Origin: Gordonia heveisoli
Lineage (GTDB): Bacteria; Actinomycetota; Actinomycetes; Mycobacteriales; Mycobacteriaceae
NCBI RefSeq assembly: GCF_030315745.1
Contig: NZ_JASXSH010000022.1
Coordinates: forward strand, 1-64,000
Length of the DNA stretch: 64,000 bases
Reading direction: 5' to 3'
In this document: piece by piece, positions 1,122 to 46,377 of the stretch
Position numbering within the stretch: the first letter of the stretch is position 1
Layout of the letters: every line of letters starts with the position of its first letter
The notes under the pieces: generated by a model
What the model was told of the DNA's origin: nothing
Database searches by the model: none
Seen by the model: the letters and a program-made list of their open reading frames with translations, nothing else
Position numbers and translations under genes: made by a program

Positions 1122-1225
1122 ACCTGCCGTCGGACCCAGACGCCGGTCGGTCCGCGACAGCGGGTGCCACCGGCACGTAAGCGCATGCAAGCATCACGAC
1201 AGCGCGCCGTCGCATCGTGTACGAC

Positions 1226-6392: not shown

Positions 6393-6410
6393 GTTCGCGC
6401 AGAGTGATCC

Positions 6411-6899: not shown

Positions 6900-6983
6900 G
6901 CCGACACGCTGCGCCATTTCGCAAAACTCGACCCGGCGACCTGAACGGTTCCGGTCGGTAGCGCGGTTGGGCGACCGCGGTCG

Positions 6984-8186
6984 CTAATCCTCGCGGAGAA
7001 AACCCGCCTCGGCCAGTGCCCGTCGAACCTGTCGCTGATGTTCGACCCCGCGGGTCTCCACACTGACCGTGACGGCAACCTCACCGAGGTAGAGATCGTC
7101 GGCGACGCGGGAATGGACGACATCGACGACACTCGCGCCGTGATCGCGGAGCAGTTCCAGCAAGGCGATCAGTCCGCCCGGCCGGTCCGAGACCACCGCC
7201 GACACAGTCAGGAACCGGCCGGCCGCGGTGAGTCCGTGGGTGGTGACATGGGTCAGCAACAACGGGTCGATATTGCCGCCCGAGGCCACCACGCAGACCG
7301 GTCCGGTGACGTCGAGCGCGCCGCTGCACAACGCCGCAATCCCGGCGACCCCGGCCGGCTCGATCACCAGTTTGGCTCGTTCGAGCATCAGGACCAGCGC
7401 CGAGGACAGCGCCTCCTCAGAGACCGTGACGACCGAATCCACATAGCGGCGAACGTAGTCAAAGGGCACCGTTCCCGGCGTGGCCACCGCGATGCCGTCG
7501 GCCATCGTGTTCATCGACTCGGCCGCAACCGGATATCCGCGTCGCAACGACGCAGGCCACGCTGCGGCCGCCGCGGCCTGCACGCCGACGATGCCGACGT
7601 CGGGTCGGCGCGGTTTGATCGCCGCCGCGATACCGGCCAGCAGCCCGCCCCCACCGGTCGGCACCACGATCGTCGCCACATCGGGCACCTGCTCCATGAT
7701 CTCCGCACCGAGCGTCGCCTGCCCGAGCACGATGTCACGGTGATCGAAAGGATGGATGAGCACCGCACCCGTGTCGTCGGCGTACGCCTGGGCCGCGACC
7801 AGCGCGTCATCGACCGTGGCGCCACCCAGGATCACCTGCGCCCCATAGGCCTTGGTCGCCGCGATCTTGGGCAGCGATGCGCCGGCCGGCATGTACACCC
7901 GGCTGGCGATGCCCAGGTCGGTCGCCGCCCACGCCACCCCTTGTGCGTGATTACCGGCACTCGCGGCCACCACTCCGCGCGACCGTTCCTCGGCACTCAA
8001 CCGGGAAATGCGGAGGTAAGCGCCGCGCGGTTTGAAGGAGCCGGTGCGTTGCAGGTTCTCGCATTTGATCCAGACCTGCGCCCCACAGCGATCCGACAGC
8101 ACGCGCGACGCGATCACCGGGGTGCGGCGCATGACCGGGGCCAGCGCCGTCGCCGCGTCGGCGATCTCCCCTTCGGTGATCAGCAT
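6984..8186 (-). CDS. ilvA: threonine ammonia-lyase (ACT-domain type)
   Basis: This PLP enzyme deaminates threonine (and often serine) to 2-oxobutyrate and ammonia, the entry to isoleucine synthesis. The 400-residue protein shows the lysine loop GSFKPRGA (Schiff-base Lys52), SAGNHAQG, and the phosphate-binding PTGGGGL. A C-terminal ACT-like domain (about 325-400) starts at VSAVVSDRPGG. The length fits the form with a single ACT domain, shorter than the roughly 510-residue E. coli IlvA. It is the last gene of cbs-metB-ilvA, 13 bases after metB, which fits 2-oxobutyrate being shared between transsulfuration and isoleucine synthesis. Whether it is mainly biosynthetic or catabolic is not clear. 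Confidence 0.9.
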   Translation of the reverse strand: MLITEGEIADAATALAPVMRRTPVIASRVLSDRCGAQVWIKCENLQRTGSFKPRGAYLRISRLSAEERSRGVVAASAGNHAQGVAWAATDLGIASRVYMPAGASLPKIAATKAYGAQVILGGATVDDALVAAQAYADDTGAVLIHPFDHRDIVLGQATLGAEIMEQVPDVATIVVPTGGGGLLAGIAAAIKPRRPDVGIVGVQAAAAAAWPASLRRGYPVAAESMNTMADGIAVATPGTVPFDYVRRYVDSVVTVSEEALSSALVLMLERAKLVIEPAGVAGIAALCSGALDVTGPVCVVASGGNIDPLLLTHVTTHGLTAAGRFLTVSAVVSDRPGGLIALLELLRDHGASVVDVVHSRVADDLYLGEVAVTVSVETRGVEHQRQVRRALAEAGFLRED

Positions 8187-32670: not shown

Positions 32671-34185
32671 GTGAGTTCAACCGTGGCCGCTTCACGTCAT
32701 CGTCGCCATTCTCTCCTGGTGCCCGATTCCAGTAGCAGCGCTGTGCCCGGCAGCCGTAAGAAGATCCGTTTCAACGCCTTCGACATGAACTGCGTCGCCC
32801 ACCAGTCCCCTGGCCTGTGGCGACACCCCGACGACCGGTCGTGGGACTACAACACGCTCGACTACTGGGTGAACCTCGCGACGCTGCTCGAATCCGGCGG
32901 CTTCGACGGCCTGTTCATCGCCGATGTGCTCGGCACCTACGACGTGTACGCCGGCAACGACGAGGCGGCGATCCGTCAGGGCGCCCAGATCCCGGTCAAC
33001 GATCCGCTACTGCTGGTGTCGGCGATGGCGCACGCGACCGAGAACCTCGGCTTCGGCATCACCACCGGCACCGGTTTCGAACATCCGTATCCGTTCGCCC
33101 GGCGCCTGTCGACGCTCGATCACCTCACCAGGGGCCGTCTCGGCTGGAATGTCGTCACCGGCTACCTCCCCGCGGCCGCCCGCAATATGGGTGACGAGGA
33201 ACACCTCGAACACGACGCCCGCTACGACCACGCCGACGAGTACCTGACCGTGCTGTACAAGCTGTGGGAGGGCTCCTGGGAACGCGATGCGGTCCGACGT
33301 GACCGCGCGGCGGGCGTCTTCGCCGATCCGGCCAAGGTCCATCACATCGGTCATCAGGGCAAGCATTTCAGCGTTCCCGGCATCCACCTGTCCGAGCCGT
33401 CTCCGCAGGGTTCGCCGGTCATCTACCAGGCGGGGGCGTCCCCGCGAGGTCGGCGATTCGCCGCCGAGAACGCCGAGGCGATCTTCGTCGCCGCCCCGAC
33501 CAAGGCGATCCTGCGCGAGATCGTCGCCAACACACGCGAAGAGCTGGTACGCGCCGGGCGTGACCCCTACGACGCCCGGATCTACACCCTGCTCACCATC
33601 ATCACCGACGCCACACCGGAGGCGGCCCGCGCCAAGGCCGAGGCCTACCGGGCCTACGCCAGCGAGGAGGGCTCGCTGGTGTTCATGTCGGGCTGGATGG
33701 GAATCGACCTGTCCACGTACAGCATCGACGAGCCGATCGGCAATGTGCACAGCAACGCCATCCAGTCCGCGGTCGCCGCGTTCAGCCAGGCCGACGAATC
33801 CGGCGAGGAGTGGCGGGTCCGCGACATCGCCGCGTGGGGTGGTATCGGCGGCATGGGTCCGGTCCTCATCGGTTCCGGCGACGAGGTCGCCGCCCAACTG
33901 CAGGAATGGGTCGACGAGACCGACGTCGACGGATTCAACGTCGCATACGCCGTGACCCCCGGATCGTTCGAGGACATCGTCACCCATGTGGTGCCCGCAC
34001 TGGAACAACGCGGCCTCTACGACCGTGCTTACACCCCGGGAACGTTGCGCCACAAGCTCTTCGGCCGCGGCAACCTCCTGCCCGACAACCATCGCGGCTC
34101 GACCTTCCGACCCGGCGGCCCGGGTTCGACGATCGACGACTCGCCGCGGCGGCAGCATTCGCTGACCGGTGCCGGGGTGCGCTGA
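32671..34185 (+). CDS. NtaA/SnaA/DszA-type FMNH2-dependent monooxygenase
   Basis: The frame from the GTG at 32671 gives 504 residues; a GTG at 32719 would better match the usual start just before KKIRFNAFDMN. Family features are HQSPGLWRHPDD, the GLFIADVLGTYDVY stretch, GRLGWNVVTGYLP, and YQAGASPRGRRFAAENAEAIFVAAPT. Members oxidise nitrilotriacetate, dibenzothiophene sulfone or dimethyl sulfide using FMNH2 from a separate reductase. No reductase gene is adjacent. The neighbourhood with sfn and ssu genes favours an organosulfur substrate, but that is inference. Confidence 0.85.
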   Translation: MSSTVAASRHRRHSLLVPDSSSSAVPGSRKKIRFNAFDMNCVAHQSPGLWRHPDDRSWDYNTLDYWVNLATLLESGGFDGLFIADVLGTYDVYAGNDEAAIRQGAQIPVNDPLLLVSAMAHATENLGFGITTGTGFEHPYPFARRLSTLDHLTRGRLGWNVVTGYLPAAARNMGDEEHLEHDARYDHADEYLTVLYKLWEGSWERDAVRRDRAAGVFADPAKVHHIGHQGKHFSVPGIHLSEPSPQGSPVIYQAGASPRGRRFAAENAEAIFVAAPTKAILREIVANTREELVRAGRDPYDARIYTLLTIITDATPEAARAKAEAYRAYASEEGSLVFMSGWMGIDLSTYSIDEPIGNVHSNAIQSAVAAFSQADESGEEWRVRDIAAWGGIGGMGPVLIGSGDEVAAQLQEWVDETDVDGFNVAYAVTPGSFEDIVTHVVPALEQRGLYDRAYTPGTLRHKLFGRGNLLPDNHRGSTFRPGGPGSTIDDSPRRQHSLTGAGVR

Positions 34186-34243: not shown

Positions 34244-35812
34244 GTGAATCGAGAGTCCTTGTCGCGTCTACGCAAGTCCTCGGGTGATCGCGTCGGTGGA
34301 GCCGACGCCACTCGCAGTGGGCAGTCACACGGGCACGGGCACTCGCACGGACACGGGCATTCACACGGCCATGGGTTGACCGACATCGCGCATCTGCTGT
34401 CACCGATGACGAAGTGGATCGTCATCGGCGTCCTGTCCATCGCCGGCCTTGCCGTGACCATCGGCGCGGTGGCGCTGTGGCCGACGAAATCCGACCATCC
34501 CATCCCGATCCTGTTCCAGTCCTCGGACGGCAAGGCGATCGAGACGGTCGACGGTGAGGTCGTCGACCAGTTTCGGGCCAACTGCCTGAACTCGGTCTCC
34601 GGCGAGGTACAGGAGACCGCCGACATTCCGGTGAATCCGGTACCGGGCGGCCCGTGCATCCTCAGTACCGTCCGACTGGACTCGGGTCCGTCGCAGGGCC
34701 GTTACACGGTGCTCGAGGTGCCGACCGGCCGCGCGGGCGGAGCCACCGGACCCGGCGCACCCCGACCCGACCCCAACGCGCTCGACGAACCGATGCCGGG
34801 CCAGCCGACACTGAAGATCGGTGACGCCATCCGGTTGTCGACGGTGCCCGGTGTCGACGGCACCCAGCGGTATACCTTCTTCGATTTCCAGCGTGGAACC
34901 GCGCTGCTCATCTGGGCATTGTTGTTCGTCGGCGCCGTCGTGCTCGTGGCAGCCTGGCGAGGTCTACGGTCGATCATCGGTCTGGCCTTCGCCTTCCTCG
35001 TGCTCGGTGTCTTCACCCTGCCCGCGATCCTGGAGGGGTCGTCGCCGGTGGCGGTCGCGCTGGTCTCCTCCGCTGCGATTCTGTTCGTCGTGCTCTATCT
35101 GGCGCACGGCGTCAGCCTGCGCACGAGTTCGGCATTGCTCGGCACACTGACCTCCCTGGTGATGGCCGCAATACTCAGCAAGGTCGCCATCGACACCATG
35201 AAGCTGACCGGGATGTCCGGCGAGCAGACCGCGAATCTGCAGATCTATCAGGGCACCATCTCGGTCAGCGGGTTGCTGCTCGCGGGCTTCATCATCGGCA
35301 CACTCGGTGTGCTCAACGACGTCACGATCACCCAGGCGTCGGCGGCTTTCGAACTCGCCGCGGCGGGCGAACCGACGCGATTGGCCACCTTCCGTGCGGC
35401 GATGCGAGTCGGTCGCGATCACATCGCGAGCACGGTGTACACGCTGGTTTTCGCCTACGCGGGCAGCGCGCTGCCCTTGCTGTTGCTGTTCTCGGTCGCC
35501 CAGCAGCCGTTCGGCTCGCTCGTCACCACCGAGACCGTCGCGGTGGAGTTGGCCCGCACTTTTGTCGGCGGCATCGCCATCGCACTGTCGGTCCCGCTGA
35601 CCACCGCGATCGCCGCAGCACTCGTCGCCCCTACGGGCGCGGCGCCAATGCCGGCCACGACCGCGACGCCCGCACCGGCGCGCCCGCGCCCGAAGCAGAC
35701 ACCTCAGGGCCGGCCCACACCGACCCCGGCGACTGCGGCCCCACCGGTTCCCGCACCCCCACCGACCACGGACATCCCCGTCTCGCGATCACGGCACGCA
35801 CGGCCCGACTGA
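34244..35812 (+). CDS. YibE/F-like membrane protein with His-rich N-terminus
   Basis: The 522-residue protein (GTG start) carries alternating His-Gly/Ser residues at about 29-44. One membrane segment (about 57-78), an extracytoplasmic domain (about 80-215) and a YibE/F-type block of six to seven segments follow; that block holds GVLNDVTITQASAAFELA. The tail is Pro/Ala/Thr-rich. The YibE/F function is unestablished. The histidine cluster could bind Zn, Ni or Cu, so a metal-linked transport role is possible. It lies between unrelated genes and seems to have its own promoter; its 3' end meets that of the convergent SxxK protein gene. Confidence 0.8.
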   Translation: MNRESLSRLRKSSGDRVGGADATRSGQSHGHGHSHGHGHSHGHGLTDIAHLLSPMTKWIVIGVLSIAGLAVTIGAVALWPTKSDHPIPILFQSSDGKAIETVDGEVVDQFRANCLNSVSGEVQETADIPVNPVPGGPCILSTVRLDSGPSQGRYTVLEVPTGRAGGATGPGAPRPDPNALDEPMPGQPTLKIGDAIRLSTVPGVDGTQRYTFFDFQRGTALLIWALLFVGAVVLVAAWRGLRSIIGLAFAFLVLGVFTLPAILEGSSPVAVALVSSAAILFVVLYLAHGVSLRTSSALLGTLTSLVMAAILSKVAIDTMKLTGMSGEQTANLQIYQGTISVSGLLLAGFIIGTLGVLNDVTITQASAAFELAAAGEPTRLATFRAAMRVGRDHIASTVYTLVFAYAGSALPLLLLFSVAQQPFGSLVTTETVAVELARTFVGGIAIALSVPLTTAIAAALVAPTGAAPMPATTATPAPARPRPKQTPQGRPTPTPATAAPPVPAPPPTTDIPVSRSRHARPD

Positions 35813-35830: not shown

Positions 35831-36721
35831 TCAGCAGCGGCCGACCGGCAGTTGCGCGTAGTACTTGCCGAGCCATCTGCCCATCCGGTTGAGCATGGCA
35901 ATGCCGTCCTGGAACCGGCCGCTGCGCGGTACGGCGGCCAGGGACACCGCGACCTGTCCACGCCGCGTCGAGACGATCGCGACCTGCCGAACGAGGTAGC
36001 CCACCGATGCCGACGTGGCGGGACCCCAACCGCCTTTGACCGCCGAGATCGCACCCGACGACCTGCCGACGCCGGCCACTCCCCACTGCTGATTGGGGGC
36101 GACCGCGCTCATCAGGCGGATCACCTGCTCACTGCCGTCCATACAGGGCAGATGCGCGGCGAACCGCGCCTGATCGGCCAGCGCCCACGCGGTATGACCG
36201 GGGTAGGACTTGGGGACGTCGACCTCCGACGAGACCCGCGTGCGCGGATCGTGTCCCTCCCGCAGGACTGCGGTCACCGCGTCGACCGAGGCGACGCCAC
36301 CGCCCAGGAAGCCCCACAGGTCACCGGCGGCGTCGTTGTCGGACAGCGTGATCGCCTTATTCTCCAGGGCAGCCACGTCCGGGCCGCCCTTGCGCTGGGC
36401 GGCCAGCGACACCGGCACCTTCAGCGTCGACCACGCGCGGCCCGTCTTCAACGGCCCCAGGGAGATGGCGCGATCACCGCCGATCGGCACGATGGCCATC
36501 CCCATCCGGCCGGGTAGCGATTTCCGCATCGACTTCTGCAGTGCGGCGAAACCCTTCGACAGCTTCCCGTCCACCGGGGTCGGCGGGGTGAGGATCTCGG
36601 CGAGGGGCTGTGCCAGTGGAAGCCCGGCCAGACCGGGGGCGCCGAAGGCAGTCCCGACGCCGGCCACGAGACAGCAGGCGAAAGTCACGGTCACCACGAA
36701 TACACGTTTAACAATTGTCAC
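35831..36721 (-). CDS. secreted beta-lactamase-fold protein (SxxK, SDN, KGG)
   Basis: The 296-residue protein has a signal peptide (about 1-27, cleavage near AFGA). The serine-enzyme motifs are Ser98-T-L-Lys101, Ser127-Asp-Asn129 and Lys229-Gly-Gly, the three boxes of class A beta-lactamases and penicillin-binding proteins. I see no clear Glu166-equivalent, so hydrolysis of beta-lactams is doubtful; a carboxypeptidase, esterase or sensor role fits too. Cys193 and the C-terminal Cys296 are shared with the upstream paralogue and may form a disulfide. It is third in a kinase operon, 132 bases after the lipoprotein paralogue. Confidence 0.82.
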   Translation of the reverse strand: MTIVKRVFVVTVTFACCLVAGVGTAFGAPGLAGLPLAQPLAEILTPPTPVDGKLSKGFAALQKSMRKSLPGRMGMAIVPIGGDRAISLGPLKTGRAWSTLKVPVSLAAQRKGGPDVAALENKAITLSDNDAAGDLWGFLGGGVASVDAVTAVLREGHDPRTRVSSEVDVPKSYPGHTAWALADQARFAAHLPCMDGSEQVIRLMSAVAPNQQWGVAGVGRSSGAISAVKGGWGPATSASVGYLVRQVAIVSTRRGQVAVSLAAVPRSGRFQDGIAMLNRMGRWLGKYYAQLPVGRC

Positions 36722-36853
36722 TTCTGCCCCTTTTGCAACAGAGGCTTCTGACGCTAACGACTCGTCCGCCGAGCCGCCAACCCGGTTACGGAATCGGAAT
36801 CAGCCCGCGACCCGATGCAGATACAACAGTCACGGCGGGACAGTCGGCGCACC

Positions 36854-37807
36854 TCAAGCCGGGCATCGTCCCCGCGGCAAGGACCGCAGGTGACGTGACA
36901 ACCAGTTCGCGACCGCATTGAGGGCCGCAACACCTCCCGACATCGATCCGGCAAGCGCGCTCATCGCGACGGCCGTCGCCCGTCCGTCGCCGAAGGTGAT
37001 GATGCCGATCTGGCGGACCAGATAGCCCGACGATTCGCCCGGCCCCCACCCGCCCTTGACCGCCGTCGACGTCGGCGCACGCATGATCTCCACACCCCAC
37101 TGCTGATTGCCCGCCACACGCCCCATCAACCCGCGCACATGATCGGTGCCGGGCATACAGGGCAGATGCGCGGTGAAGGTGGCCGCGGCCGAAAGCGACC
37201 ACCGCGTCTGCCCGAAGATGGTGTACCCGGCCCGGCGTTGCCGTGCAGGCACCACCGACGTCTGGTCGCCACCCTCGCGAAGGACCGACGTGACCGCTTG
37301 CGCGGCAGCCGCATCCGAGCCGAGCGACGACCACAACGTCTGGGCCGCATCGTTGTCGGAGTCGATGATGGCGGCGGTCTCGGCGGCCGACGGGCCGTTC
37401 ACCCGCTCGGCGGCGACGGCCAACGGCACCTTGATCGTGGACCAGGCGACCCGGTCGGTCCGATCGCCGAGGGTCAGGGCGGCGACCGCGTCACCGCCAA
37501 CCGGCGCCATCGCGACCCCGACGGTCGCACCCGTGACGGACACCGCAGCCGTGAAGCTGTCGCGCAGCCCCGGATAGTCCGCCCCCCGCGTCGTCGGCAC
37601 CGACGACGAACCAGATTCCACACCCGGCGGTGACGACCCGATGGTCGAGGTCACCGTGACGGTGGCGGCGGGCTGATCGGCCTCCGGCGACGAACATCCG
37701 GCCAGCACACCCGGACCCACCAGCACGACACCCACCAGCGCCACCGCCCGAACCCACGACCTGCGGCGCAACCCGCCTCCGATGACCCTCACCGATGCGA
37801 CCCCCAT
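36854..37807 (-). CDS. lipoprotein paralogue with beta-lactamase-type motifs
   Basis: The 317-residue product has a lipobox LAGC (lipidated Cys38), a Thr/Ser/Pro-rich linker (about 40-75) and an SxxK domain: Ser123-T-I-Lys126, Ser150-Asp-Asn152, Lys251-Gly-Gly. It aligns along its length with the secreted protein downstream (CMPG/CMDG, NQQWGV, VKGGWGP, GYLVRQ), so the pair arose by duplication. Cys217 and Cys315 match the other copy's cysteines. Its ATG overlaps the kinase stop as TGATG, pointing to translational coupling with the receptor kinase. Substrate and activity are unknown. Confidence 0.85.
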   Translation of the reverse strand: MGVASVRVIGGGLRRRSWVRAVALVGVVLVGPGVLAGCSSPEADQPAATVTVTSTIGSSPPGVESGSSSVPTTRGADYPGLRDSFTAAVSVTGATVGVAMAPVGGDAVAALTLGDRTDRVAWSTIKVPLAVAAERVNGPSAAETAAIIDSDNDAAQTLWSSLGSDAAAAQAVTSVLREGGDQTSVVPARQRRAGYTIFGQTRWSLSAAATFTAHLPCMPGTDHVRGLMGRVAGNQQWGVEIMRAPTSTAVKGGWGPGESSGYLVRQIGIITFGDGRATAVAMSALAGSMSGGVAALNAVANWLSRHLRSLPRGRCPA

Positions 37808-39321
37808 CAGTAGATGTGTACCACCGCGTCGTTACCTCCCCGGCAGATCACGATGCCGGATTCCGGTGCGCACGACATCTGATACGACTGGCTGGTGACC
37901 GGGCTGTAGGCGGTCACCACCCGGGCGGTACCCTTCGGCCCCGACCGCAGGTATGCATCGCGGACGGCCGCCGCGAACGAACAACTCGTCACCTGGGTAC
38001 CGATCCCGACCGTCGAATCGCAGGGCACCGATCCAGGTGGCGGGGTGACCGGGGTCACCGGCGATTCAGAGGCCGGGGTCGACGGAGTCTCGCCACCCGG
38101 GACCACCTTGGTCACCGTCGAGGTGCTCGCGGCGGGAGTATCCGACGAATCGTCGCCACCACGACCGAAGAGCAGGATGCCGCCGAGCACCACCACCCCG
38201 ATGATCGCCACTGCGATCACCCCGAACAGTATCGGCATCACCGGCGAATTCTTTTGCCGTGCAGGGGGATACGACGACGGCGGTGGCGGATACCCGACCG
38301 GCCCGGAGGCCGTCGGGACCCCGGCGGCCGGGGTCACCGTACGCGGCGGAAGCCCGGGCACGCGCAGCGTCGGATCAGAACCGGTCTGTTGCGGCCATGC
38401 CTGCCCCGCGGGTGCCGCGGTGACGGTCGGCGGGGCCGGGTTGATGGACGGCCGGGCCGGGGTGATGGTCGGCGGAGCCGACACCGGCTGCGTCGGCGCC
38501 ACCAGCGCGGCGTGCGCGGCGCGCGCGAGATCACTCGCCCGGTGAAACCGTTGAGCCGGATCGAGGGCGAGACCCCGGCCGATGACCGGGTCGAAGGCCG
38601 CGGGCACGTCGACGTTGACCGAGCTCGGAGCCGGGGGCGGACCGGACAGCGCCGCCATCAGCGACGCACTGACCGAATCGGCCGGATGCGGGACCTGCCC
38701 GGTCAGGCACTCGAACAACACACAGGACAGCGCGTAGATGTCGGCGGCCGCGGTGATCTCGGCGTCGTCGAAGAGTTCGGGTGCCATATACGCGACGGAA
38801 CCGATCGCGGTGCCGGCCTGGGTGAGGTGGGTGTCGTCGGCGGCGTGGGCGATACCGAAATCGACGAGGTAGGCGAAATCATCCGCGCCGACCAGGATGT
38901 TCTCCGGCTTCACGTCACGGTGCACGAGCCGTTGTGCATGCGCCGCATCCAGCGCGGAAGCCACCTGCGCGACGATGGCGACCGCACGCGAAGGATCGAG
39001 ACGGTGCTCGCGTTTGAGGAGCGCGCGCAGGTCCTCCCCCTCGACCAGGCGCATGTCGATGAACAGCACGCCGTCGATCTGACCCCAGTCGTGGATCGGG
39101 ATCACATGCGGCTCACCAAGTCTGGCGGCGGCATGCGACTCGCGGCGGAACCGCTCCTGGTACATCGAATCGGTCGCCAGTCCGGCGTTGAGCAACTTCA
39201 GCGCGACGACCCGATCCTTGACCGTGTCGTAGGCGCGATACACCTCGCCCATCCCGCCGCGACCCAGCAGCTTGTCCAGCCGGTACGGGCCGAACTGCCT
39301 GGTGACGCGCTCATCGGACAT
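37807..39321 (-). CDS. receptor-type Ser/Thr protein kinase
   Basis: From the ATG at 39321 the protein has 504 residues. The kinase domain (about 11-275) shows GRGGMGEVY, ATP-binding Lys42, HRDVKPEN with catalytic Asp136, and DFG at 154-156. A Pro/Thr-rich linker, one membrane segment (about 362-386), a second linker and a small exterior domain (about 430-504) with four cysteines (434, 447, 484, 493) follow. The exterior domain has no PASTA repeats; its YSPVT and CRGGN patterns occur, as I recall, in actinobacterial secreted proteins. It is first in a three-gene operon with two beta-lactamase-fold proteins, which may act as ligand sensors or targets; this is inference. Confidence 0.92.
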   Translation of the reverse strand: MSDERVTRQFGPYRLDKLLGRGGMGEVYRAYDTVKDRVVALKLLNAGLATDSMYQERFRRESHAAARLGEPHVIPIHDWGQIDGVLFIDMRLVEGEDLRALLKREHRLDPSRAVAIVAQVASALDAAHAQRLVHRDVKPENILVGADDFAYLVDFGIAHAADDTHLTQAGTAIGSVAYMAPELFDDAEITAAADIYALSCVLFECLTGQVPHPADSVSASLMAALSGPPPAPSSVNVDVPAAFDPVIGRGLALDPAQRFHRASDLARAAHAALVAPTQPVSAPPTITPARPSINPAPPTVTAAPAGQAWPQQTGSDPTLRVPGLPPRTVTPAAGVPTASGPVGYPPPPSSYPPARQKNSPVMPILFGVIAVAIIGVVVLGGILLFGRGGDDSSDTPAASTSTVTKVVPGGETPSTPASESPVTPVTPPPGSVPCDSTVGIGTQVTSCSFAAAVRDAYLRSGPKGTARVVTAYSPVTSQSYQMSCAPESGIVICRGGNDAVVHIY

Positions 39322-39397
39322 GTCACCGAGCTTAGGCTGCCACATCCGCCACCACATGCCGTCGGCAGCAGGATCGCCCAAAGAGACGACGTCGCCG

Positions 39398-40624
39398 TCA
39401 GATCACCCCATGCAACGGCGGCCGTTCACCTACCAAGGCATACCGGCCGATACGTTGTAGCTTCCACCGCACCGGATCGTGCAGCGTATGGGTGCGACCG
39501 TCGCGCCAGTACCGGTCCAGACCGTCACCCCCGACTGCGCTGCGGGTACCGCCGACCTCGAACAGCGCCGACGACACGGCCGTCACCACCCGATCGGCCA
39601 CGACTTTTCCGGTCGCCACCGCAATCGACGCCCGTGCGACCGCGTCGGCGGATTCGGCATCTGCCCGGTGGGCAACCGCCTCGTCCACGCGCCGACCGGC
39701 CTCGGCGAGTACCGCCTCGGCCGTCGCTACCTCGACCGCGAGTTCGCCGAACCGCTGCACCAACAACGGATCGTCGGTGGCCTGATCCACCCCGGCCTCG
39801 AACCACGGCCGCGACTTCGTGCGGACGAACTCCCCCGCCGCCGCCAGCGCCCCGCGGGCGATGCCCACGTCGATCGCGACGTGCAGCAGTTGCGCGAATG
39901 CTCCGTAGCCGGTGGGCGCCGAGACCGCACCGGCGCGCGCCACCAGGTCGGCCGAGGACACCGCCACCTCGGTCAGGCGCACCGTCCCCGATCCGGTGGT
40001 CCGCTGCCCCAGGGCATTCCAGTCGTCGATCACCTCGACGCCGGGAGCGTCGGCCTGGATGAACGCGATGTACTCGCCCGACGCCAGCCCGACCGCAGGC
40101 TCGTCGAGGCGGGCCAGGACGGCCAGGGTGTGTGCAAACAGCGAACCGGTGCAGTAGAACTTCTCACCGTTCAGGACGAATCCGCCGTCGGCGGCCGGTG
40201 TCAGCCGGGTGGTGATGTCGGCGATCGTCTTACCGCCACGCTCGGATTGGGCGTTGGCGACCCGGCCACCATCGAGGACGGCACCGAAGATCCGTGCCGA
40301 CAGGTCGCCGTCACCGACCAGCCGGAGCAGGTTCAGATAGACGAAATGACTGTGCGGAATCTGCGCGATACTCGGATCGGCCGCGGCCAGGATGGCGATC
40401 ACCTCGGCGACCACGCTCGGTGGCAGATCGGCGCCACCGAACTCGGCAGGCACGGTCAGTGCGAGCAGACCGGCCGCCGACAATCGATCGATCTCGTCGT
40501 GGGGCAGCCGGCGCCGCCGATCGCGGTCGGCGGCCCCGGCGGCGAATTCCACCGCCAGGGTGCGCGCCGATTCCAGCGCCTGCGCTGCCGAGGTGATGCG
40601 AATTGCGGGTGACGCGAGGGTCAT
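39398..40624 (-). CDS. sfnB: acyl-CoA-dehydrogenase-family flavoprotein, SfnB-like
   Basis: The 408-residue protein has the acyl-CoA dehydrogenase layout, with IPHSHFVYLNLLR, GEKFYCTGSLFA and a late RYWRDGRTHTLHDP region. The latter replaces the usual catalytic motif and marks the SfnB/DszC-like monooxygenase group. SfnB is linked to growth on dimethyl sulfone, with FMN-dependent oxygen chemistry proposed. Its ATG overlaps the sfnG stop by four bases (40621-40624), so the two are co-translated. A partner flavin reductase is not encoded nearby. Confidence 0.83.
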   Translation of the reverse strand: MTLASPAIRITSAAQALESARTLAVEFAAGAADRDRRRRLPHDEIDRLSAAGLLALTVPAEFGGADLPPSVVAEVIAILAAADPSIAQIPHSHFVYLNLLRLVGDGDLSARIFGAVLDGGRVANAQSERGGKTIADITTRLTPAADGGFVLNGEKFYCTGSLFAHTLAVLARLDEPAVGLASGEYIAFIQADAPGVEVIDDWNALGQRTTGSGTVRLTEVAVSSADLVARAGAVSAPTGYGAFAQLLHVAIDVGIARGALAAAGEFVRTKSRPWFEAGVDQATDDPLLVQRFGELAVEVATAEAVLAEAGRRVDEAVAHRADAESADAVARASIAVATGKVVADRVVTAVSSALFEVGGTRSAVGGDGLDRYWRDGRTHTLHDPVRWKLQRIGRYALVGERPPLHGVI

Positions 40625-41733
40625 GCGACACCGGCGGGAGCTTCGGCGGCCTCCAGCTCACGTACGAGCGGCAGCACCTTCTCGCCGAAGTACTCGATCT
40701 CCTCCTGGAAGTGCAGGAAGCCGCCGAGGATGAGGTCGACGCCGAGACGCTTGTAGGCGACGATTCGCTCCGCAACCTGCTCGGGCGTCCCGATCAGCTG
40801 CGTGCGGAATCCGTCGTTGTACTGGACGAGATCCTCGAAGGTCGAATCCGCCCACATGCCCTGCTTGTCCCCGGTGGAGTTGCCTGCCTGTTGCACCGCA
40901 CTCCGGAATCCTTCCACTGCTGGACGATTCGCCTTCTCCACGATCTCGCGGAGAGTGTCGCGAGCCTCCTTCTCGGTGTCGCGGGCGATGATGAAGCCGT
41001 TGAGTCCGAATTTGACCGACCGGTCGTGTGCCCGGGCGACCGCACGCAGGTCGTCGAGTTGCTCGGTGACGCCGTCGAAATCCTTGCCGTTGGAGAAGTA
41101 CCAGTCGGCGTAGCGGCCACCGTTGTTGCGGGCAGCCGTCGAGTTGCCGCCCTGGAAGAGTTCGGGGTTGGGCCGTTCCGGGGTGTTGAGCGGCTTGGGC
41201 TTCAGTGTGAAGTCGTGGATGCGGTAGAAGTCACCGCTGAACTCGACGTCGTCCTCTGTCCAGATCTTGCGGATCGCCTGCAGGAACTCGCCGCTGCGGC
41301 GGTAGCGCTCGTCGTGCTCGAGCCACTGCTCGCCGAGGTGGATGAACTCGTCCTTGAACCAGCCGCTGACGACGTTGATCGCGAAGCGTCCGTTGGACAG
41401 GTGGTCGGCGGTGGCGCCGAACTTCGCCAGCACGGCCGGGTGCCACAGCCCCGGATGGACGGCGGCGATCACCTTGAGCCGCTGCGTCGCGAGTAGCAGC
41501 GCGAGGCTGAAACTGGTGGACTCATGCTGGAATTCGGCACCGTAGCTGGCCTCGTAGCGCACCTGCGAGAGGGCATATTCGAAGCCGTTGTTCTCCGCGG
41601 TCTGTGCGAGCTTGACGTTGTACTCGTAGTCCCAGCTCGTGCGCTGTTCGATGTCACTGGTGACCAGGCCCCCACTGACGTTGGGCACCCAGTAGGCGAA
41701 CTTGATCTGATCGGCGATGGATTCGGTGGACAT
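40621..41733 (-). CDS. sfnG: dimethyl sulfone monooxygenase SfnG
   Basis: The 370-residue luciferase-like protein has KFAYWVPNVSGGLVTSDIEQRT near the start, HPGLWHPAVLAKFGATADHLSNGR, GWFKDEFIHLGEQWLEHDERYRR and FQGGNSTAARNNGGRYADWYF. These are characteristic of the SfnG group. SfnG uses FMNH2 and oxygen to turn dimethyl sulfone into methanesulfinate. It has a good GGAGG ribosome-binding site before the ATG, is coupled to sfnB, and lies 89 bases after ssuD, so ssuD-sfnG-sfnB is a likely sulfur-scavenging operon. Induction under sulfate limitation is expected from homologues. Confidence 0.88.
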   Translation of the reverse strand: MSTESIADQIKFAYWVPNVSGGLVTSDIEQRTSWDYEYNVKLAQTAENNGFEYALSQVRYEASYGAEFQHESTSFSLALLLATQRLKVIAAVHPGLWHPAVLAKFGATADHLSNGRFAINVVSGWFKDEFIHLGEQWLEHDERYRRSGEFLQAIRKIWTEDDVEFSGDFYRIHDFTLKPKPLNTPERPNPELFQGGNSTAARNNGGRYADWYFSNGKDFDGVTEQLDDLRAVARAHDRSVKFGLNGFIIARDTEKEARDTLREIVEKANRPAVEGFRSAVQQAGNSTGDKQGMWADSTFEDLVQYNDGFRTQLIGTPEQVAERIVAYKRLGVDLILGGFLHFQEEIEYFGEKVLPLVRELEAAEAPAGVA

Positions 41734-41759
41734 GATTACCTCCGGTGAGAGCGGTCGGA

Positions 41760-41771
41760 CGGACCGGTCCG
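41760..41771. promoter_or_regulatory. CGGACC/GGTCCG palindrome before sfnG
   Basis: The perfect 12-base palindrome CGGACCGGTCCG sits 27 bases before the sfnG start, between ssuD and sfnG. The same half-site appears, with a seven-base spacer, in the hairpin before ssuD. A shared operator is possible; short GC palindromes are common by chance here. Confidence 0.35.
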
Positions 41772-41822
41772 CTCGTGATGACGTGTGTATGTGGTGGGAG
41801 ACGAGATCGGGCGTCGGCCGGA

Positions 41823-42998
41823 TCAGGACGAGGCGGCCTGCAGGGTGGGCAGGAACGCGCCGCGCACCGGCTCCTGGCCGGCCTCATCGTCGTCGAGCAA
41901 GCCCAGTCGAGCCAGCGCCGGACGGACACCCTCGCCGAAGTGATAGGCCTCCTCCAGATGCGGATAGCCCGACAGCACAAAGTGTTCGAGGCCCAGCGCG
42001 GAGTACTCGGCGATCAGCTCGGCGACCTCGTCATAGGAACCGACGAGCGCGGTACCGGCTCCGCCGCGGACCAGACCGACACCCGACCACACGCCGGGGT
42101 GGATCTGCAGCGAACGGGGGTCTGCGCCATTGGCGAATCCGGCACCGCGATTGTGCAGTTCCGACATCCGCCGCTGCCCTTCGGATTCCGATTGGGCCAG
42201 GTTCTGCTGGGCCGCGGCAACCGTCGCCGGATCGAGATTGGACAGCAACCGCTCCGCCTCGGTCCACGCCTGCGCGGAGGTCTCGCGGGCAATCACGTGG
42301 AACCGAATCCCGTGCGAGACATCGCGGGCACGCTCCGCGGCGAGACCGTTGATCCAGTTGATCTTGTCGGCCACCGCGTCCGGACGCTCACCCCAGGTGA
42401 GGTAGACGTCGGCGTATTCGGCGGCGACGTCACCGGCGGCAGGCGACGAACCGCCGAAGAAGACCTGCGGCACCGGATCGGGCCGTCGACCGAGGGTCGC
42501 ACCCTCCACCCGCAGGTGCTTTCCGACGACGTCGACGGGTTCGTCCGAGGTCCACAACCGCCGGACGATGTCGAGGTACTCCCCGCACCGCTCGTACCGC
42601 GCGTTCTTCGCCAGGAAATCCCCGAAGGCACGCTGCTCGGAGGACTCCCCACCGGTCACGACGTTGACCAGCAGACGCCCCTGCGAGTGGTACTGGAAGG
42701 TGGTGGCCATCTGCGCGGCCAGGGTCGGACTCAGCAGCCCTGGGCGGAAGGCCACCAGGAACTTCAGCGTCTCGGTCGCATCGATCAGCGCAGCGGTGGT
42801 CAACCAGGCGTCCTCACACCACAATCCGGCGGGTGTCAGCACTGCTTCGAATCCATTGATCTCGGCCGCGCCGGCCAGTTGCTTCAGGTAACGCAGGTCG
42901 GCGGGACGATCACCGGTCATCTGGCTGCCGTGGCCACCCGCAATCAGATTGCGCGAATCACCGTACGTGGGCAGAAACCAGTGGAAGTGCAGAGACAC
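41823..42998 (-). CDS. ssuD: FMNH2-dependent alkanesulfonate monooxygenase
   Basis: The GTG at 42998, with AAGGAAAGG upstream, starts a 391-residue luciferase-like protein. SsuD features include FHWFLPTYGDSR, the substrate-pocket stretch LTPAGLWCEDAWL, FQYHSQGRLLVNVVTGG and VFFGGSSPAAGDVAAEYADVYLTWGE. It desulfonates alkanesulfonates to aldehyde and sulfite using FMNH2 and oxygen. No ssuE reductase or SsuABC transporter is nearby, so these must be encoded elsewhere. It heads the ssuD-sfnG-sfnB group; methanesulfinate from SfnG can, after oxidation to methanesulfonate, be a substrate of this family. Confidence 0.9.
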   Translation of the reverse strand: MSLHFHWFLPTYGDSRNLIAGGHGSQMTGDRPADLRYLKQLAGAAEINGFEAVLTPAGLWCEDAWLTTAALIDATETLKFLVAFRPGLLSPTLAAQMATTFQYHSQGRLLVNVVTGGESSEQRAFGDFLAKNARYERCGEYLDIVRRLWTSDEPVDVVGKHLRVEGATLGRRPDPVPQVFFGGSSPAAGDVAAEYADVYLTWGERPDAVADKINWINGLAAERARDVSHGIRFHVIARETSAQAWTEAERLLSNLDPATVAAAQQNLAQSESEGQRRMSELHNRGAGFANGADPRSLQIHPGVWSGVGLVRGGAGTALVGSYDEVAELIAEYSALGLEHFVLSGYPHLEEAYHFGEGVRPALARLGLLDDDEAGQEPVRGAFLPTLQAASS

Positions 42999-43022
42999 CG
43001 GACACCTTTCCTTCTGAGACAG

Positions 43023-43047
43023 CATCGGACCGCGATCGGGTCCGATG
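43023..43047. promoter_or_regulatory. hairpin in the leader of ssuD
   Basis: Nine-base arms CATCGGACC and GGTCCGATG surround a seven-base spacer, 25 bases upstream of the ssuD start. It could be an operator or an RNA hairpin. It does not match a riboswitch known to me. Confidence 0.5.
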
Positions 43048-43171: not shown

Positions 43172-43834
43172 CTATTCGGTTCCGCTGCGCCAACGACCCA
43201 TGCCGAGGAACACCATCACGAGCTGACGCTCGGTTCGGGTGACGACATCGGATTCCCAATCACGGCCGCGTCGGTCGCCGTCGAGGAGTTCGGCGACGGC
43301 GGTGAGCATGATGGTGACGATCAGGTCGGCGGCGAGTTCGAGATCTTCGGCCTCCCACCGGGCGAGGTCGGGTAGCCGCGCCAGGTCGATCGCGAGTTCC
43401 TTGGCGAACAACCGCAATTCGGTGTCGATCGCCCGTCGGATCTCGGTCACTCCCCCATGTTGCTCACGAATCAGGAATCGGAACTGCGACTCGTTGTCGC
43501 GGACGTGCCGCATCAGGATTTCCAGCGAGATCCGTGCGGTGGGCAACACCTGCCGCGAGGCGAGGTCGCGGCGCCCTTCGCGCAATGTCCGCCGCAGGAC
43601 CCGCATCGAATCCTCGACGAGGGTCACACCGAGGTCTTCCATAGAGGCGAAATGGCGGTAGAAGGCCGTCGGGACGATTCCCGCACCGCGCGCCACCTCG
43701 CGCAGGCTGATGCTGCCGAAACTCCGTTCGGCGACCAGTTCCATGGTGGTGTCCAGCAGCGCCTGCCGGGTCTGATTCTTGCGGTCAGCCCGCGACTGCG
43801 TCTCACGCTGGCTCGAGTGTCGAGTCCGGGTCAC
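43172..43834 (-). CDS. TetR-family regulator of the desaturase operon
   Basis: This 220-residue repressor (GTG start at 43834) has an N-terminal helix-turn-helix with ISLREVARGAGIVPTAFYRHFASMEDLG (about 43-70) and a helical C-terminal domain. It is divergent from the reductase-desaturase genes; the 177 bases between contain two operator-like palindromes. In mycobacteria, DesA3/reductase genes are controlled by TetR proteins sensing acyl-CoAs, so this is the probable local regulator. It is not certain whether it also acts on ssuD downstream. Confidence 0.87.
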   Translation of the reverse strand: MTRTRHSSQRETQSRADRKNQTRQALLDTTMELVAERSFGSISLREVARGAGIVPTAFYRHFASMEDLGVTLVEDSMRVLRRTLREGRRDLASRQVLPTARISLEILMRHVRDNESQFRFLIREQHGGVTEIRRAIDTELRLFAKELAIDLARLPDLARWEAEDLELAADLIVTIMLTAVAELLDGDRRGRDWESDVVTRTERQLVMVFLGMGRWRSGTE

Positions 43835-43958
43835 GCACCGAGTCTAGGCGTCAGGAGGCACGCCCCCGGACCGAACCCACCCCCATTGGTGACGGCGGTC
43901 ACGAAATTCTCCCTTGACGCCGCACCGAGAACATATGCCACACTTGTTTGTGTACAGT

Positions 43959-43990
43959 TGTTCACTGAAACATCGTTGTTCACTGGAACA
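43959..43990. promoter_or_regulatory. two tandem TGTTC-type palindromes before the reductase-desaturase genes
   Basis: Sites 43959-43972 (TGTTCACTGAAACA) and 43977-43990 (TGTTCACTGGAACA) differ at one base. The second has perfect TGTTC/GAACA arms. The starts are 18 bases apart and the nearer one ends 21 bases before the start codon at 44012. The divergent TetR gene at 43172-43834 is the likely source of the binding protein. Confidence 0.7.
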
Positions 43991-44011
43991 GCATCCGAAG
44001 GGAGCCAGCCC

Positions 44012-45085
44012 ATGAGCATCCTGAACCGATGGATCGGCTCGGTCGTCGAGGCCACCGTGACACCCCACCCGCTCGACCGCTACCTCGAGCTGGTCGACCC
44101 CATGCTGACCTGGCGCGATATGCGCGCCCGCGTCGTCGCCATCAACCACCCCACCCCGCGCACCGTGCGCCTGCGACTGCGGCCCACCCGCCAGTGGCGC
44201 GGCCACCGGGCCGGACAGTTCGTACAGCTCGGCGTCGTTATCGACGGCGTTCGGCACACGCGCTGCTTCTCGCCGGCCAACGCCGCCTGCGACGCGCACA
44301 GCGACATCGAATTGCTCGTGACCAGCCACGACGACGGGTTCGTGTCCCGCCACCTGGCACACGACGCCAGAGTGGGTGATGTCCTACAGCTGTCGCAGGC
44401 CGGCGGAGATTTCCACCTGCCAAGCATCGACCCGACCTCGATCGTTCTCGTCAGCGGTGGGAGTGGGATTACACCTGTACTCTCAATCCTGCGAACACTT
44501 GTCGCGAGTCACTACGGAGGACGCATCACGTTCGTGCACTATGTGCCGAGCGCCGCCGACCTCGCCTATCGCGCCGAACTCACCGCCCTGGCTGCCCTGG
44601 AACCCAATCTCGACCTACGGATCCACTACACCCGGGCCGGCGGTGGGCACTTCACCGGCGACCATCTCGACGGAATCGACGATCTTGCCACCGCAGACGT
44701 ATTCGTCTGCGGCCCACCGTCGCTGATGGACGCCGTCGAAACCTTCCACCACGATGCCGAACTCCTCGGCCCGCTGCACCGCGAGGCATTCACCGCCGCG
44801 GCGCCGATCAGCGTCGACCCCGATCAGCCGGTGAGCGGGGACCTATCGTTCTCCGCGTCGTCGACCGCCGTCGCCAACGACGGTCGCACCATCCTCGACC
44901 AGGCCGAATCGGCGGGCCTGCGTCCCGAATTCGGTTGCCGTATGGGGATCTGCTTCTCCTGCACCGCAACCAAGGTCTCCGGATGCACCCGCAACGTGCT
45001 CACCGGCGAGACCGACTCCGAAGCCGACACCCAGATCCAGCTCTGCGTCAACGCCCCCGTGGGCGACGTGGACATCCGCATCTAG
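44012..45085 (+). CDS. ferredoxin/flavodoxin-NADPH-type reductase for DesA3
   Basis: The 357-residue protein (ATG at 44012, AAGGGAG upstream) has an FAD-binding domain with GQFVQLG and RCFSPA (here HTRCFSPAN), an NADPH-binding domain with VSGGSGITP, and a C-terminal plant-type [2Fe-2S] domain. The cluster cysteines are 309, 314, 317 and 345 (CRMGICFSC and QLC). It should pass electrons from NADPH to the desaturase 75 bases downstream, as Rv3230c does for DesA3 in M. tuberculosis. Its stop codon lies within a threefold 15-base repeat. Confidence 0.92.
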   Translation: MSILNRWIGSVVEATVTPHPLDRYLELVDPMLTWRDMRARVVAINHPTPRTVRLRLRPTRQWRGHRAGQFVQLGVVIDGVRHTRCFSPANAACDAHSDIELLVTSHDDGFVSRHLAHDARVGDVLQLSQAGGDFHLPSIDPTSIVLVSGGSGITPVLSILRTLVASHYGGRITFVHYVPSAADLAYRAELTALAALEPNLDLRIHYTRAGGGHFTGDHLDGIDDLATADVFVCGPPSLMDAVETFHHDAELLGPLHREAFTAAAPISVDPDQPVSGDLSFSASSTAVANDGRTILDQAESAGLRPEFGCRMGICFSCTATKVSGCTRNVLTGETDSEADTQIQLCVNAPVGDVDIRI

Positions 45086-45120
45086 CCCAGCCGCATCTGG
45101 CCCAGCCGCATCTAGCCCAG
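45076..45120. repeat. three tandem 15-base repeats spanning a stop codon
   Basis: The unit CCGCATCTRGCCCAG is repeated three times (45076-45090, 45091-45105, 45106-45120); the middle copy has G where the others have A. The TAG in the first copy is the stop of the reductase gene. Because the unit is five codons long, the later copies stay in frame, and loss or mutation of the first TAG would add only about 10 residues before the third copy's TAG. Confidence 0.9.
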
Positions 45121-45159
45121 CCGTCCGGCCCACCCCTACATCGAAGGAGGAACCACGCC

Positions 45160-46377
45160 ATGACGCTCGACATCCCCCAGACCCGCCCGGCCCATCTCCC
45201 GCAGATCCTCGAACCGGCCGCCACCCGCGACCCCGGTACCGATCCGACCGCCACCGACTCGACGACCATCGTGCTGTCCTATGAGCAGGTCGAGGAACTC
45301 GGTCGCGAGCTCGACGCCCTGCGCGCCCGGGTCGTCGCCGATCTCGGCGAATCCGACCGCGAGTACCTGTACTCGATCATCCGCGCCCAACGCGGGTTCG
45401 AGGTGGCCGGCCGCGCACTGATGTATCTCGGCTTCTTCCCGCCCGCCTGGATCGCCGCGGTCGGCGCACTCTCGGTGTCGAAGATCCTCGACAACATGGA
45501 GATCGGCCACAATGTGATGCACGGCCAGTACGACTGGATGCGTGAGGACACCTACAACTCACGCGAATTCGAGTGGGACACCGTGTGTCCGGCCGATCAG
45601 TGGCGCCACAGTCACAACTACCTGCACCACACCTTCACCAACATCCTCGGCCAGGACCGCGACATCGGCTACGGCATCCTCCGGATGGCCCGCGACCAGA
45701 AGTGGAATCCCTACTACCTCGGCAATCTCGGGTACGCGACCGCACTGATGCTGCTGTTCGAGTGGGGCGTGATGCTCCACGACCTCGAGACCGAGAACAT
45801 CATCGCCGGTAAGCGCAAGTGGAGCGACGTCAAAGGTCTACTGAAAGGCATGTGGCGCAAGGCCCGTCGTCAGGTCGTCAAGGACTACGTCGTCTTCCCA
45901 GCACTGACCGGACCGCTGTTCATCCCTACACTGGTGGGCAATGCCACCGCCAATCTGGTGCGCAACGTCTGGACGTACTCCATCATCTTCTGCGGCCACT
46001 TCCCTTCGGGTGCACAGACATTCACCCCAGAGGAATGTGCCGAGGAGACTCGCGGCCAGTGGTACCTGCGGCAGATGCTCGGGTCGGCGAATATCACCGG
46101 CAGCCCGCTGTTCCACGTCATGAGCGGCAATCTGTCCCACCAGATCGAACATCACCTGTTCCCCGATCTGCCGGCCAGCCGCTATCCGGCGATCGCCGGT
46201 GAGGTTCGCGAGATCTGCGAACGCCACGGCCTGCCGTACAACACGGGTTCGCTGACCAAACAGCTGACGTCGACGTGGAAGAAGATCGCGAAGCTGTCGC
46301 TACCCAATTTCATGACCCGTGACGACGACGATCTGGTGGTCATCGTCGAACGCACCAAACCCGCGGCCACAGCCTGA
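45160..46377 (+). CDS. desA3: acyl-CoA delta-9 (stearoyl-CoA) desaturase
   Basis: The start is the ATG at 45160 with AAGGAGG upstream; the product is 405 residues. The three histidine boxes of membrane di-iron desaturases are present: GHNVMHGQ, WRHSHNYLHH and QIEHHLFPD. Hydrophobic segments flank them. It should insert a cis double bond into stearoyl-CoA, giving oleate for membrane lipids, with the reductase just upstream. Gene pairing and sequence resemble Rv3230c-desA3 of M. tuberculosis. A TetR gene and twin operators precede the pair. Confidence 0.9.
   Translation: MTLDIPQTRPAHLPQILEPAATRDPGTDPTATDSTTIVLSYEQVEELGRELDALRARVVADLGESDREYLYSIIRAQRGFEVAGRALMYLGFFPPAWIAAVGALSVSKILDNMEIGHNVMHGQYDWMREDTYNSREFEWDTVCPADQWRHSHNYLHHTFTNILGQDRDIGYGILRMARDQKWNPYYLGNLGYATALMLLFEWGVMLHDLETENIIAGKRKWSDVKGLLKGMWRKARRQVVKDYVVFPALTGPLFIPTLVGNATANLVRNVWTYSIIFCGHFPSGAQTFTPEECAEETRGQWYLRQMLGSANITGSPLFHVMSGNLSHQIEHHLFPDLPASRYPAIAGEVREICERHGLPYNTGSLTKQLTSTWKKIAKLSLPNFMTRDDDDLVVIVERTKPAATA

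What the first reader, a model, noticed from the sequence alone, without database searches (positions are those of the whole stretch)
35831..39321. Receptor kinase coupled to two beta-lactamase-fold paralogues
A Ser/Thr kinase with an exterior domain is translationally coupled (TGATG) to a lipoprotein with SxxK, SDN and KGG motifs, followed by a secreted paralogue. Each paralogue also has a shared Cys pair and no obvious Glu166. Co-expression suggests a system that senses or alters cell-wall intermediates or beta-lactams and signals through the kinase. I know of no described system of this form.
Basis: partly seen in the sequence, partly recalled or inferred. Interest (0 to 1): 0.7.

Follow-up and report, generated by a model that had tools for sequence, protein, structure and literature searches.

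The report
Kinase receptor paired with beta-lactamase-like protein
A membrane kinase sits beside a membrane-tethered relative of beta-lactamases in many actinobacteria, and the small outside domain of the kinase (often without the kinase) is the constant partner, which suggests an undescribed cell-wall sensing or regulating pair.

Summary
A Ser/Thr kinase (37807-39321, minus) overlaps by one base a lipoprotein (BLA1, 36854-37807), followed by a 45% identical exported paralogue (BLA2, 35831-36721). Both belong to the class A beta-lactamase fold, with SxxK, SDN and KGG motifs and a Cys pair, but no Glu at the sequence-aligned Glu166 column.

The constant unit is not kinase-SxxK-SxxK but the kinase's small four-Cys exterior domain (here SENS) plus a BLA. 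In 59 genomes of the window's genus, 45 have SENS, each with a BLA1-type hit; the other 14 have only weaker, mostly BLA2-type hits. BLA2 is separable. In relatives SENS lies beside BLA in four relative orientations, on a PknB/StpK7-like kinase, on one very divergent kinase, or without a kinase, also on plasmids and once outside the order. Catalytic residues are nearly invariant. SENS has no Pfam or significant PDB match.

Best reading: a split envelope receptor in which an acyl-serine protein binds cell-wall peptides or beta-lactams, SENS contacts it, and kinase output is optional. Pairing is well supported; ligand, contact and signalling are inferred. Ten open-access paper searches found no description.

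The parts
38467..39321 (-). Ser/Thr kinase catalytic domain (glycine-rich loop, HRD, DFG read by eye); gene start ATG at 39321, alternative TTG at 39381
   Evidence: Pfam Pkinase E 3.8e-42; closest NCBIfam StpK7, kinase domain only, 373.8 bits, below its 900-bit cut-off; translation
38167..38241 (-). Predicted transmembrane segment of the kinase (approximate, by eye)
   Evidence: hydrophobic stretch; helix in the low-confidence part of the model
37810..38040 (-). SENS: exterior four-Cys domain of the kinase, one helix and four main strands
   Evidence: C77, C90, C127, C136 of the 147-residue stretch invariant in 38 and in 41 rows; AlphaFold2 block means pLDDT 87-96 for residues 71-147
37805..37809 (-). 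TGATG stop/start overlap joining kinase and BLA1
   Evidence: sequence
36854..37807 (-). BLA1: lipoprotein of class A beta-lactamase fold
37694..37705 (-). BLA1 lipobox LAGC (residues 35-38)
   Evidence: translation, by eye
37430..37441 (-). BLA1 SxxK (S123-K126)
   Evidence: S and K in 209 of 210 frames, the other a gap
37352..37360 (-). BLA1 SDN (150-152)
   Evidence: S 208, D 209, N 208 of 210
37049..37057 (-). BLA1 KGG (251-253)
   Evidence: K 209, G 206, G 209 of 210
37157..37159 (-). BLA1 Cys217, paired with Cys315 (36863-36865) by inference
   Evidence: Cys in 208 and 206 of 210 frames
35831..36721 (-). BLA2: exported paralogue, same fold by homology; separable from the kinase
   Evidence: 45% identity to BLA1; BLA1 and BLA2 clades of the genus are sisters, support 85
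36419..36430 (-). BLA2 SxxK (98-101)
   Evidence: translation and alignment
36335..36343 (-). BLA2 SDN (127-129)
   Evidence: translation and alignment
36029..36037 (-). BLA2 KGG (229-231)
   Evidence: translation and alignment

Best explanation
A split envelope receptor. BLA1 is a membrane-tethered, class A-fold acyl-serine protein that reacts with a D-alanyl peptide of the cell wall or a beta-lactam through Ser123-Lys126 but is not built to hydrolyse the adduct fast (inferred from the missing Glu166). The kinase's SENS domain binds BLA1 beside the membrane (inferred from adjacency, joint absence and tethering) and, where a kinase domain is attached, passes the occupancy of BLA1 to the cytoplasm by a change in kinase pairing (inferred). 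Shown here: homology, nearly invariant catalytic residues, SENS-BLA pairing across genera and gene orders, membrane tethering of the paired BLA. Not shown: ligand, acylation, contact, signalling. The kinase is one of several outputs bolted on to the SENS-BLA pair; loci without a kinase must do something the kinase is not needed for, such as holding or regulating a DD-peptidase.
For: Genus: SENS in 45 of 59 genomes, each of the 45 with a hit to BLA1 of 204.6 bits or more, the 14 SENS-negative genomes at 190.1 or less (the dividing score was chosen after looking); 50 of 56 SENS hits have a BLA close downstream on the same strand. Family: both in 89, BLA only 12, SENS only 14, neither 86 of 201 genomes, Fisher p 3.6e-28, not corrected for kinship. 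Four relative orientations: SENS then BLA, BLA then kinase-SENS, convergent, divergent (one locus). SENS sits on PknB/StpK7-like kinases, on a very divergent kinase on a Rhodococcus ruber plasmid (Pfam Pkinase E 1.5e-8; far outside the others) and on kinase-less membrane proteins; 6 of 7 plasmid BLAs have SENS just upstream; one actinobacterium outside the order has the kinase-less pair. Of 116 BLA frames within 700 bases of SENS (repeats included), 105 score a lipobox, 2 more look like one by eye, 8 look TM-anchored, 1 is cut by a contig end. Catalytic residues and R265-Q266 in 209 of 210 frames.
Against: Kinase-less SENS proteins show no recognisable output domain (three scanned), so sensing through a kinase cannot be the only job. 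A distance-matrix (mirror-tree) test was not specific: over 65 loci SENS-BLA r 0.58, SENS-KIN 0.59, BLA-KIN 0.72, partial SENS-BLA given KIN 0.28. BLA without SENS exists: 18 of 113 loci within the stretch fetched, 12 of 201 genomes, BLA2, and extra genus copies of 186-211 bits, two of which I examined and which look TM-anchored (L121, L123); so tethering is not peculiar to SENS partners, and 16 of 34 BLAs without SENS in the stretch score a lipobox. SENS without BLA exists: 14 of 201 genomes (possibly BLA misses, as 5 candidates a genome were scored), 5 of 113 loci. Some family members have an acidic residue one before or four after the Glu166 column, so hydrolysis in them, and in BLA2, is not excluded. 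No binding, acylation or phosphorylation datum exists.
Confidence: 0.42

Rival explanations
1. SENS is an anchor or regulator of an enzyme, not a sensor: BLA is a DD-carboxypeptidase or endopeptidase of the wall and SENS recruits, activates or inhibits it; the kinase, where present, is controlled together with it or tunes it rather than reading its ligand.
For: Kinase-less SENS beside BLA in 29 of 113 loci (28 upstream, 1 divergent; a few repeats and one possibly incomplete frame included) and on 4 of 7 plasmid records; catalytic residues in 209 of 210 frames; paired BLAs tethered to the membrane.
Against: SENS has joined two very different kinase domains, which suggests that signalling from it is useful; no peptidase activity is known to me for this family.
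Confidence: 0.33
2. BLA1 and BLA2 are working beta-lactamases (intrinsic resistance) and the kinase regulates or responds to them.
For: Class A fold and SxxK/SDN; window BLA2 has a Glu next to the aligned Glu166 column, and many relatives have an acidic residue four positions later; one plasmid member is annotated serine hydrolase with a beta-lactam catabolism term.
Against: The Glu166 column is Glu in 2 of 65 and 0 of 52 rows; window proteins reach 17.9 and 19.1 bits against a 22-bit Pfam cut-off and miss the NCBIfam class A cut-offs by far; a soil class A-fold protein without Glu166, LRA-5, gives no resistance (PMC12777564, abstract).
Confidence: 0.12
3. A shared operon without a shared mechanism: envelope-stress genes that happen to be inherited side by side.
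For: Much of the co-occurrence is inherited and not corrected for kinship; distance-matrix test not specific.
Against: Four relative orientations, plasmid copies, one copy outside the order, and joint absence in the genus.
Confidence: 0.1

Closest known systems
Class A beta-lactamases, e.g. BlaC (Pfam PF13354)
   Different: 16-24% identity in the structural alignments shown; no Glu at the sequence-aligned Glu166 column; KGGW and VRQ motifs; a Cys pair; lipid or TM tether; SENS partner
LRA-5, a soil class A-fold protein without Glu166 (PDB 8EO5; PMC12777564, abstract read)
   Same: Class A fold without Glu166; found by the BLA profile at E 4.4e-7
   Different: No partner domain or kinase mentioned in the abstract; I read no further
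PknB/PASTA kinases of Gram-positive bacteria
   Same: Cytoplasmic kinase, one TM, exterior wall-facing part (PASTA role recalled)
   Different: Misses the PASTA-kinase equivalog cut-off (292 of 450 bits); no PASTA hit; SENS instead
StpK7 (MSMEG_1200) kinase
   Same: Nearest NCBIfam kinase domain, 373.8 bits
   Different: Below the 900-bit cut-off; only residues 8-280, the kinase domain, align; StpK7 is described in a phage-resistance island (passages of PMC13355554)
BlaR1/MecR1 beta-lactam receptors (recalled)
   Same: Logic: an acylated beta-lactamase-fold sensor outside, a signal inside
   Different: Those fuse the sensor to a membrane protease in one chain; here the fold is class A, separate, with a kinase
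BLIP, beta-lactamase inhibitory protein (recalled)
   Same: Small alpha+beta domain that would dock on a class A fold; helix plus four strands
   Different: Not among the fold matches listed; relation untested

Membership tests
Class A beta-lactamase | Class A fold | tested here: met
Class A beta-lactamase | SxxK, SDN, K-T/S-G | tested here: met
   SxxK and SDN nearly invariant; third motif is KGG, a variant
Class A beta-lactamase | Glu166 deacylating base | tested here: not met
   2 of 65 and 0 of 52 rows at the sequence-aligned column; acidic residues one before (BLA2) or four after (many relatives, neither window protein) leave the structural question open
Class A beta-lactamase | Hydrolysis of beta-lactams | not testable with these tools
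   needs enzyme assay
Pfam PF13354 Beta-lactamase2 | Gathering score 22 | tested here: inconclusive
   window proteins 17.9 and 19.1 bits; relative L074 27.8 bits; 18 of 18 members of A3, the two window proteins included, hit at E up to 1
PASTA kinase (PknB/Stk1) | Equivalog cut-off 450 and PASTA exterior | tested here: not met
   292 bits; no PASTA hit
StpK7 | NCBIfam cut-off 900 | tested here: not met
   373.8 bits, kinase domain only
Bacterial Ser/Thr kinase | Kinase fold with catalytic motifs | tested here: met
   Pkinase E 3.8e-42; HRD and DFG read in the translation
BlaR1/MecR1 | Sensor and membrane protease in one chain | tested here: not met
   no protease domain among Pfam hits of the three proteins; separate chains
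BLIP fold | BLIP-like alpha+beta domain | tested here: inconclusive
DD-peptidase | Cleavage of D-Ala-D-Ala peptides | not testable with these tools
   needs assay

The most novel reading that the evidence does not exclude
A new kind of receptor: a class A beta-lactamase-fold protein that has given up fast hydrolysis serves as the tethered ligand-binding subunit, and a previously undescribed four-Cys domain reads it and has been fused independently to different kinase domains, so that Ser/Thr phosphorylation in Nocardia, Mycobacterium, Tsukamurella, a Rhodococcus plasmid and the window's genus reports the state of cell-wall peptides or beta-lactams.
Probability: 0.3. Interest if true: 0.85.

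Novelty: new variant of a known kind. Interest (0 to 1): 0.62.

Why it matters
The ligands of most bacterial receptor kinases are unknown (recalled). Here a kinase exterior domain comes with a partner whose active site is nearly invariant and could be labelled with fluorescent penicillin, so both the ligand and the sensing step become directly testable. The pair is in Mycobacterium and Nocardia species as well as soil genera; of the 7 plasmid members, 5 are annotated only as hypothetical protein. It would also show a class A fold used as a receptor subunit, and a small exterior domain of no family that I could find.

Tried and rejected

Dropped or biased before counts: the 80 named loci came from a motif scan ([AS]WSTxKVP), so their W, S and K are not independent evidence; of 426 relatives only the best 80 were kept by the tool. 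Searches count frames without removing repeat genomes. Seven repeat loci were dropped and at least three genomes still appear twice there (L074/L124, L076/L127, L078/L193). L203 is called kinase-less there but its frame may be incomplete. One search skipped frames without WS[TS]xK silently (they were left out of alignments A4 and A5 only); one search did not use that filter. The extra loci L121-L123 were left out of the tallies.
Full report
1. What is there. On the minus strand of the window lie three genes: a Ser/Thr kinase (37807-39321; an upstream TTG at 39381 is also possible), a lipoprotein (BLA1, 36854-37807) and an exported paralogue (BLA2, 35831-36721). Kinase stop and BLA1 start share one base (TGATG). 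The gap from BLA1 to BLA2 is 132 bases. The kinase domain is an ordinary bacterial one with HRD and DFG; its nearest named relative is the kinase domain of StpK7, far below that family's cut-off. BLA1 and BLA2 are 45% identical.

3. Glu166 (recalled numbering). The column that the profile aligns with it is Glu in 2 of 65 (A1) and 0 of 52 (A5) rows. The column before is Glu in 23 of 65 and 8 of 52; in A1, 13 of those 23 carry the WSTLK of the genus BLA2 type, and window BLA2 is one. A column four residues later is Asp or Glu in 22 of 65 and 46 of 52 rows, but in neither window protein. I infer an acyl-serine protein that is not a good beta-lactamase for BLA1, with less certainty for BLA2 and for relatives with the later acid. 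The invariant Arg265 is a candidate for binding the carboxylate of a peptide or beta-lactam (inference).

5. Pairing in the genus. Of 59 genomes, 45 have SENS; their best hits to BLA1 are 204.6 bits or more, while the 14 without SENS reach at most 190.1 (G131) and 189.7 (G003). The dividing score was chosen after looking, and a few extra BLAs of 200-211 bits in SENS-positive genomes lie away from SENS, so score alone does not define the type. Of 56 SENS hits, 50 are followed on the same strand by a BLA. In 37 genomes examined as loci, kinase-SENS lies beside a BLA1 in 28 (in one, L108, with a kinase-less SENS gene between), kinase-less SENS in 2 (L092, L099), and 7 show no SENS in the stretch, two of them on short or ending contigs. 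Kinase, BLA1 and BLA2 lie within about 2.7 kb in 21 of 37, in L093 and L103 with another gene between. BLA2 alone remains in five genomes (L086, L101, L109, L111, L120). So kinase-SENS and BLA1 come and go together and BLA2 is separable.

6. Pairing beyond the genus. BLA was found in 250 of 401 genomes of the family, 21 of 31 genera; SENS in 103 of 201, 19 of 31 genera. On the 201 shared genomes: both 89, BLA only 12, SENS only 14, neither 86 (kinship not corrected). Named loci include Nocardia, Rhodococcus, Mycobacterium, Mycolicibacterium, Antrihabitans, Williamsia, Aldersonia and Skermania. In 113 loci outside the genus, judged within the stretch fetched: 38 kinase-SENS then BLA, 28 kinase-less SENS then BLA, 8 SENS cut by a contig end then BLA, 8 convergent kinase-SENS and BLA, 4 BLA then kinase-SENS, 1 divergent kinase-less, 3 SENS more than 2.5 kb away, 18 BLA without SENS, 5 SENS without BLA. 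The convergent and BLA-first records are titled Mycobacterium or Mycolicibacterium, except one titled only Mycobacteriaceae (L137) and one Bifidobacterium MAG (L156). SENS in 249 genomes of the order: 25, all listed ones in the same family. In 246 genomes of the class one outside the order, G778, has a strong BLA (230 bits), and it too has a kinase-less SENS protein next to it. Other class hits outside the family are below 75 bits.

7. Different outputs. In the kinase tree 50 of 51 SENS kinases fall in one group of 55 rows with five other kinases. The exception is on a conjugative Rhodococcus ruber megaplasmid, where SENS ends a very divergent kinase (Pfam Pkinase E 1.5e-8), downstream of PP2C phosphatase and VWA genes. 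Of 7 plasmid records with a BLA, 6 have SENS just upstream: two on kinases (R. ruber, Tsukamurella), four without a kinase hit. In the BLA tree kinase-less SENS partners fill the outer lineages and also reappear inside the genus (midpoint root, long branches), which fits a kinase-free origin with later kinase fusion and at least one loss, but does not prove it.

8. Location. Of 116 BLA frames within 700 bases of a SENS domain, 105 score a lipobox, two more look like one by eye, eight (Mycobacterium type) have an uncleaved-looking TM segment, one is cut. By contrast the BLA2 proteins of the genus and four orphan BLAs of genus g50 (L070, L072, L073, L079) read as ordinary signal peptides. SENS partners are thus tethered where a membrane-anchored SENS could touch them. 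Tethering is not peculiar to them: 16 of 34 BLAs without SENS in the stretch score a lipobox, 13 of those beside another Nocardia kinase, which in the three of that family whose tails I read next to a BLA (L157, L191, L133) has a different exterior domain, and L121 and L123 look TM-anchored.

9. How it may work. Pairing, tethering and an intact acylation site are shown by comparison; contact, ligand, acylation and signalling are inferred. I prefer a split receptor (0.42), with a SENS-regulated wall enzyme close behind (0.33). Kinase-less pairs are the main difficulty for the receptor reading.

10. Known or new. Ten searches of open PMC papers gave no description; subscription papers are not held. 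The BLA and kinase belong to known superfamilies; the pairing, and SENS, belong to nothing I could find.

Noticed in passing
L250 (Rhodococcus ruber plasmid pmega_2) 124-4645: VWA protein, PP2C phosphatase, divergent kinase ending in SENS, and BLA in a row on a conjugative megaplasmid.
   Followed up: partly
L242 (G778, another order) 1034-7907: Kinase-less SENS protein plus BLA beside genes that read by eye as gyrA and gyrB; the only BLA above 75 bits outside the family among 246 genomes of the class.
   Followed up: partly
L137 3815-5623 (Mycobacteriaceae MAG): A kinase whose exterior part reads by eye like a periplasmic amino-acid-binding protein, next to BLA and the SENS kinase.
   Followed up: no
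L157 3649-5586, L191 3588-5606, L133 4022-5710 (Nocardia): A second kinase family with another exterior domain, divergent from a lipoprotein BLA that has no SENS next to it.
   Followed up: partly
L092 11048-11304 (G009): The SENS domain is split over two frames in this genome, beside a BLA1; no kinase domain was found in the 17-kb stretch.
   Followed up: no
L108 6914-9055 (G024): A kinase-less SENS gene and a kinase-SENS gene in tandem before one BLA.
   Followed up: no
G268:C151, G320:C167, G381:C194 (SENS hits): Open frames of 252-289 residues around SENS suggest three more kinase-less forms in the genus.
   Followed up: no
L156 (record titled Bifidobacterium breve MAG): Its BLA and SENS kinase group with Mycobacterium in both trees; probably a binning error.
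   Followed up: no
window 34244-35812 (+): YibE/F-like membrane protein (Pfam E 3.8e-66) convergent with BLA2, next to BLA2 in many genus loci.
   Followed up: partly
window 39398-43025 (-) and 32671-34185 (+): Acyl-CoA dehydrogenase-like gene (Pfam) and others that look like FMN monooxygenases of a sulfur-source cluster (recalled, not tested).
   Followed up: no
window 43457-46377 (+): Ferredoxin-reductase-like and fatty-acid desaturase-like genes (by eye), also near the kinase locus in two other genera (L064, L075, L078).
   Followed up: no
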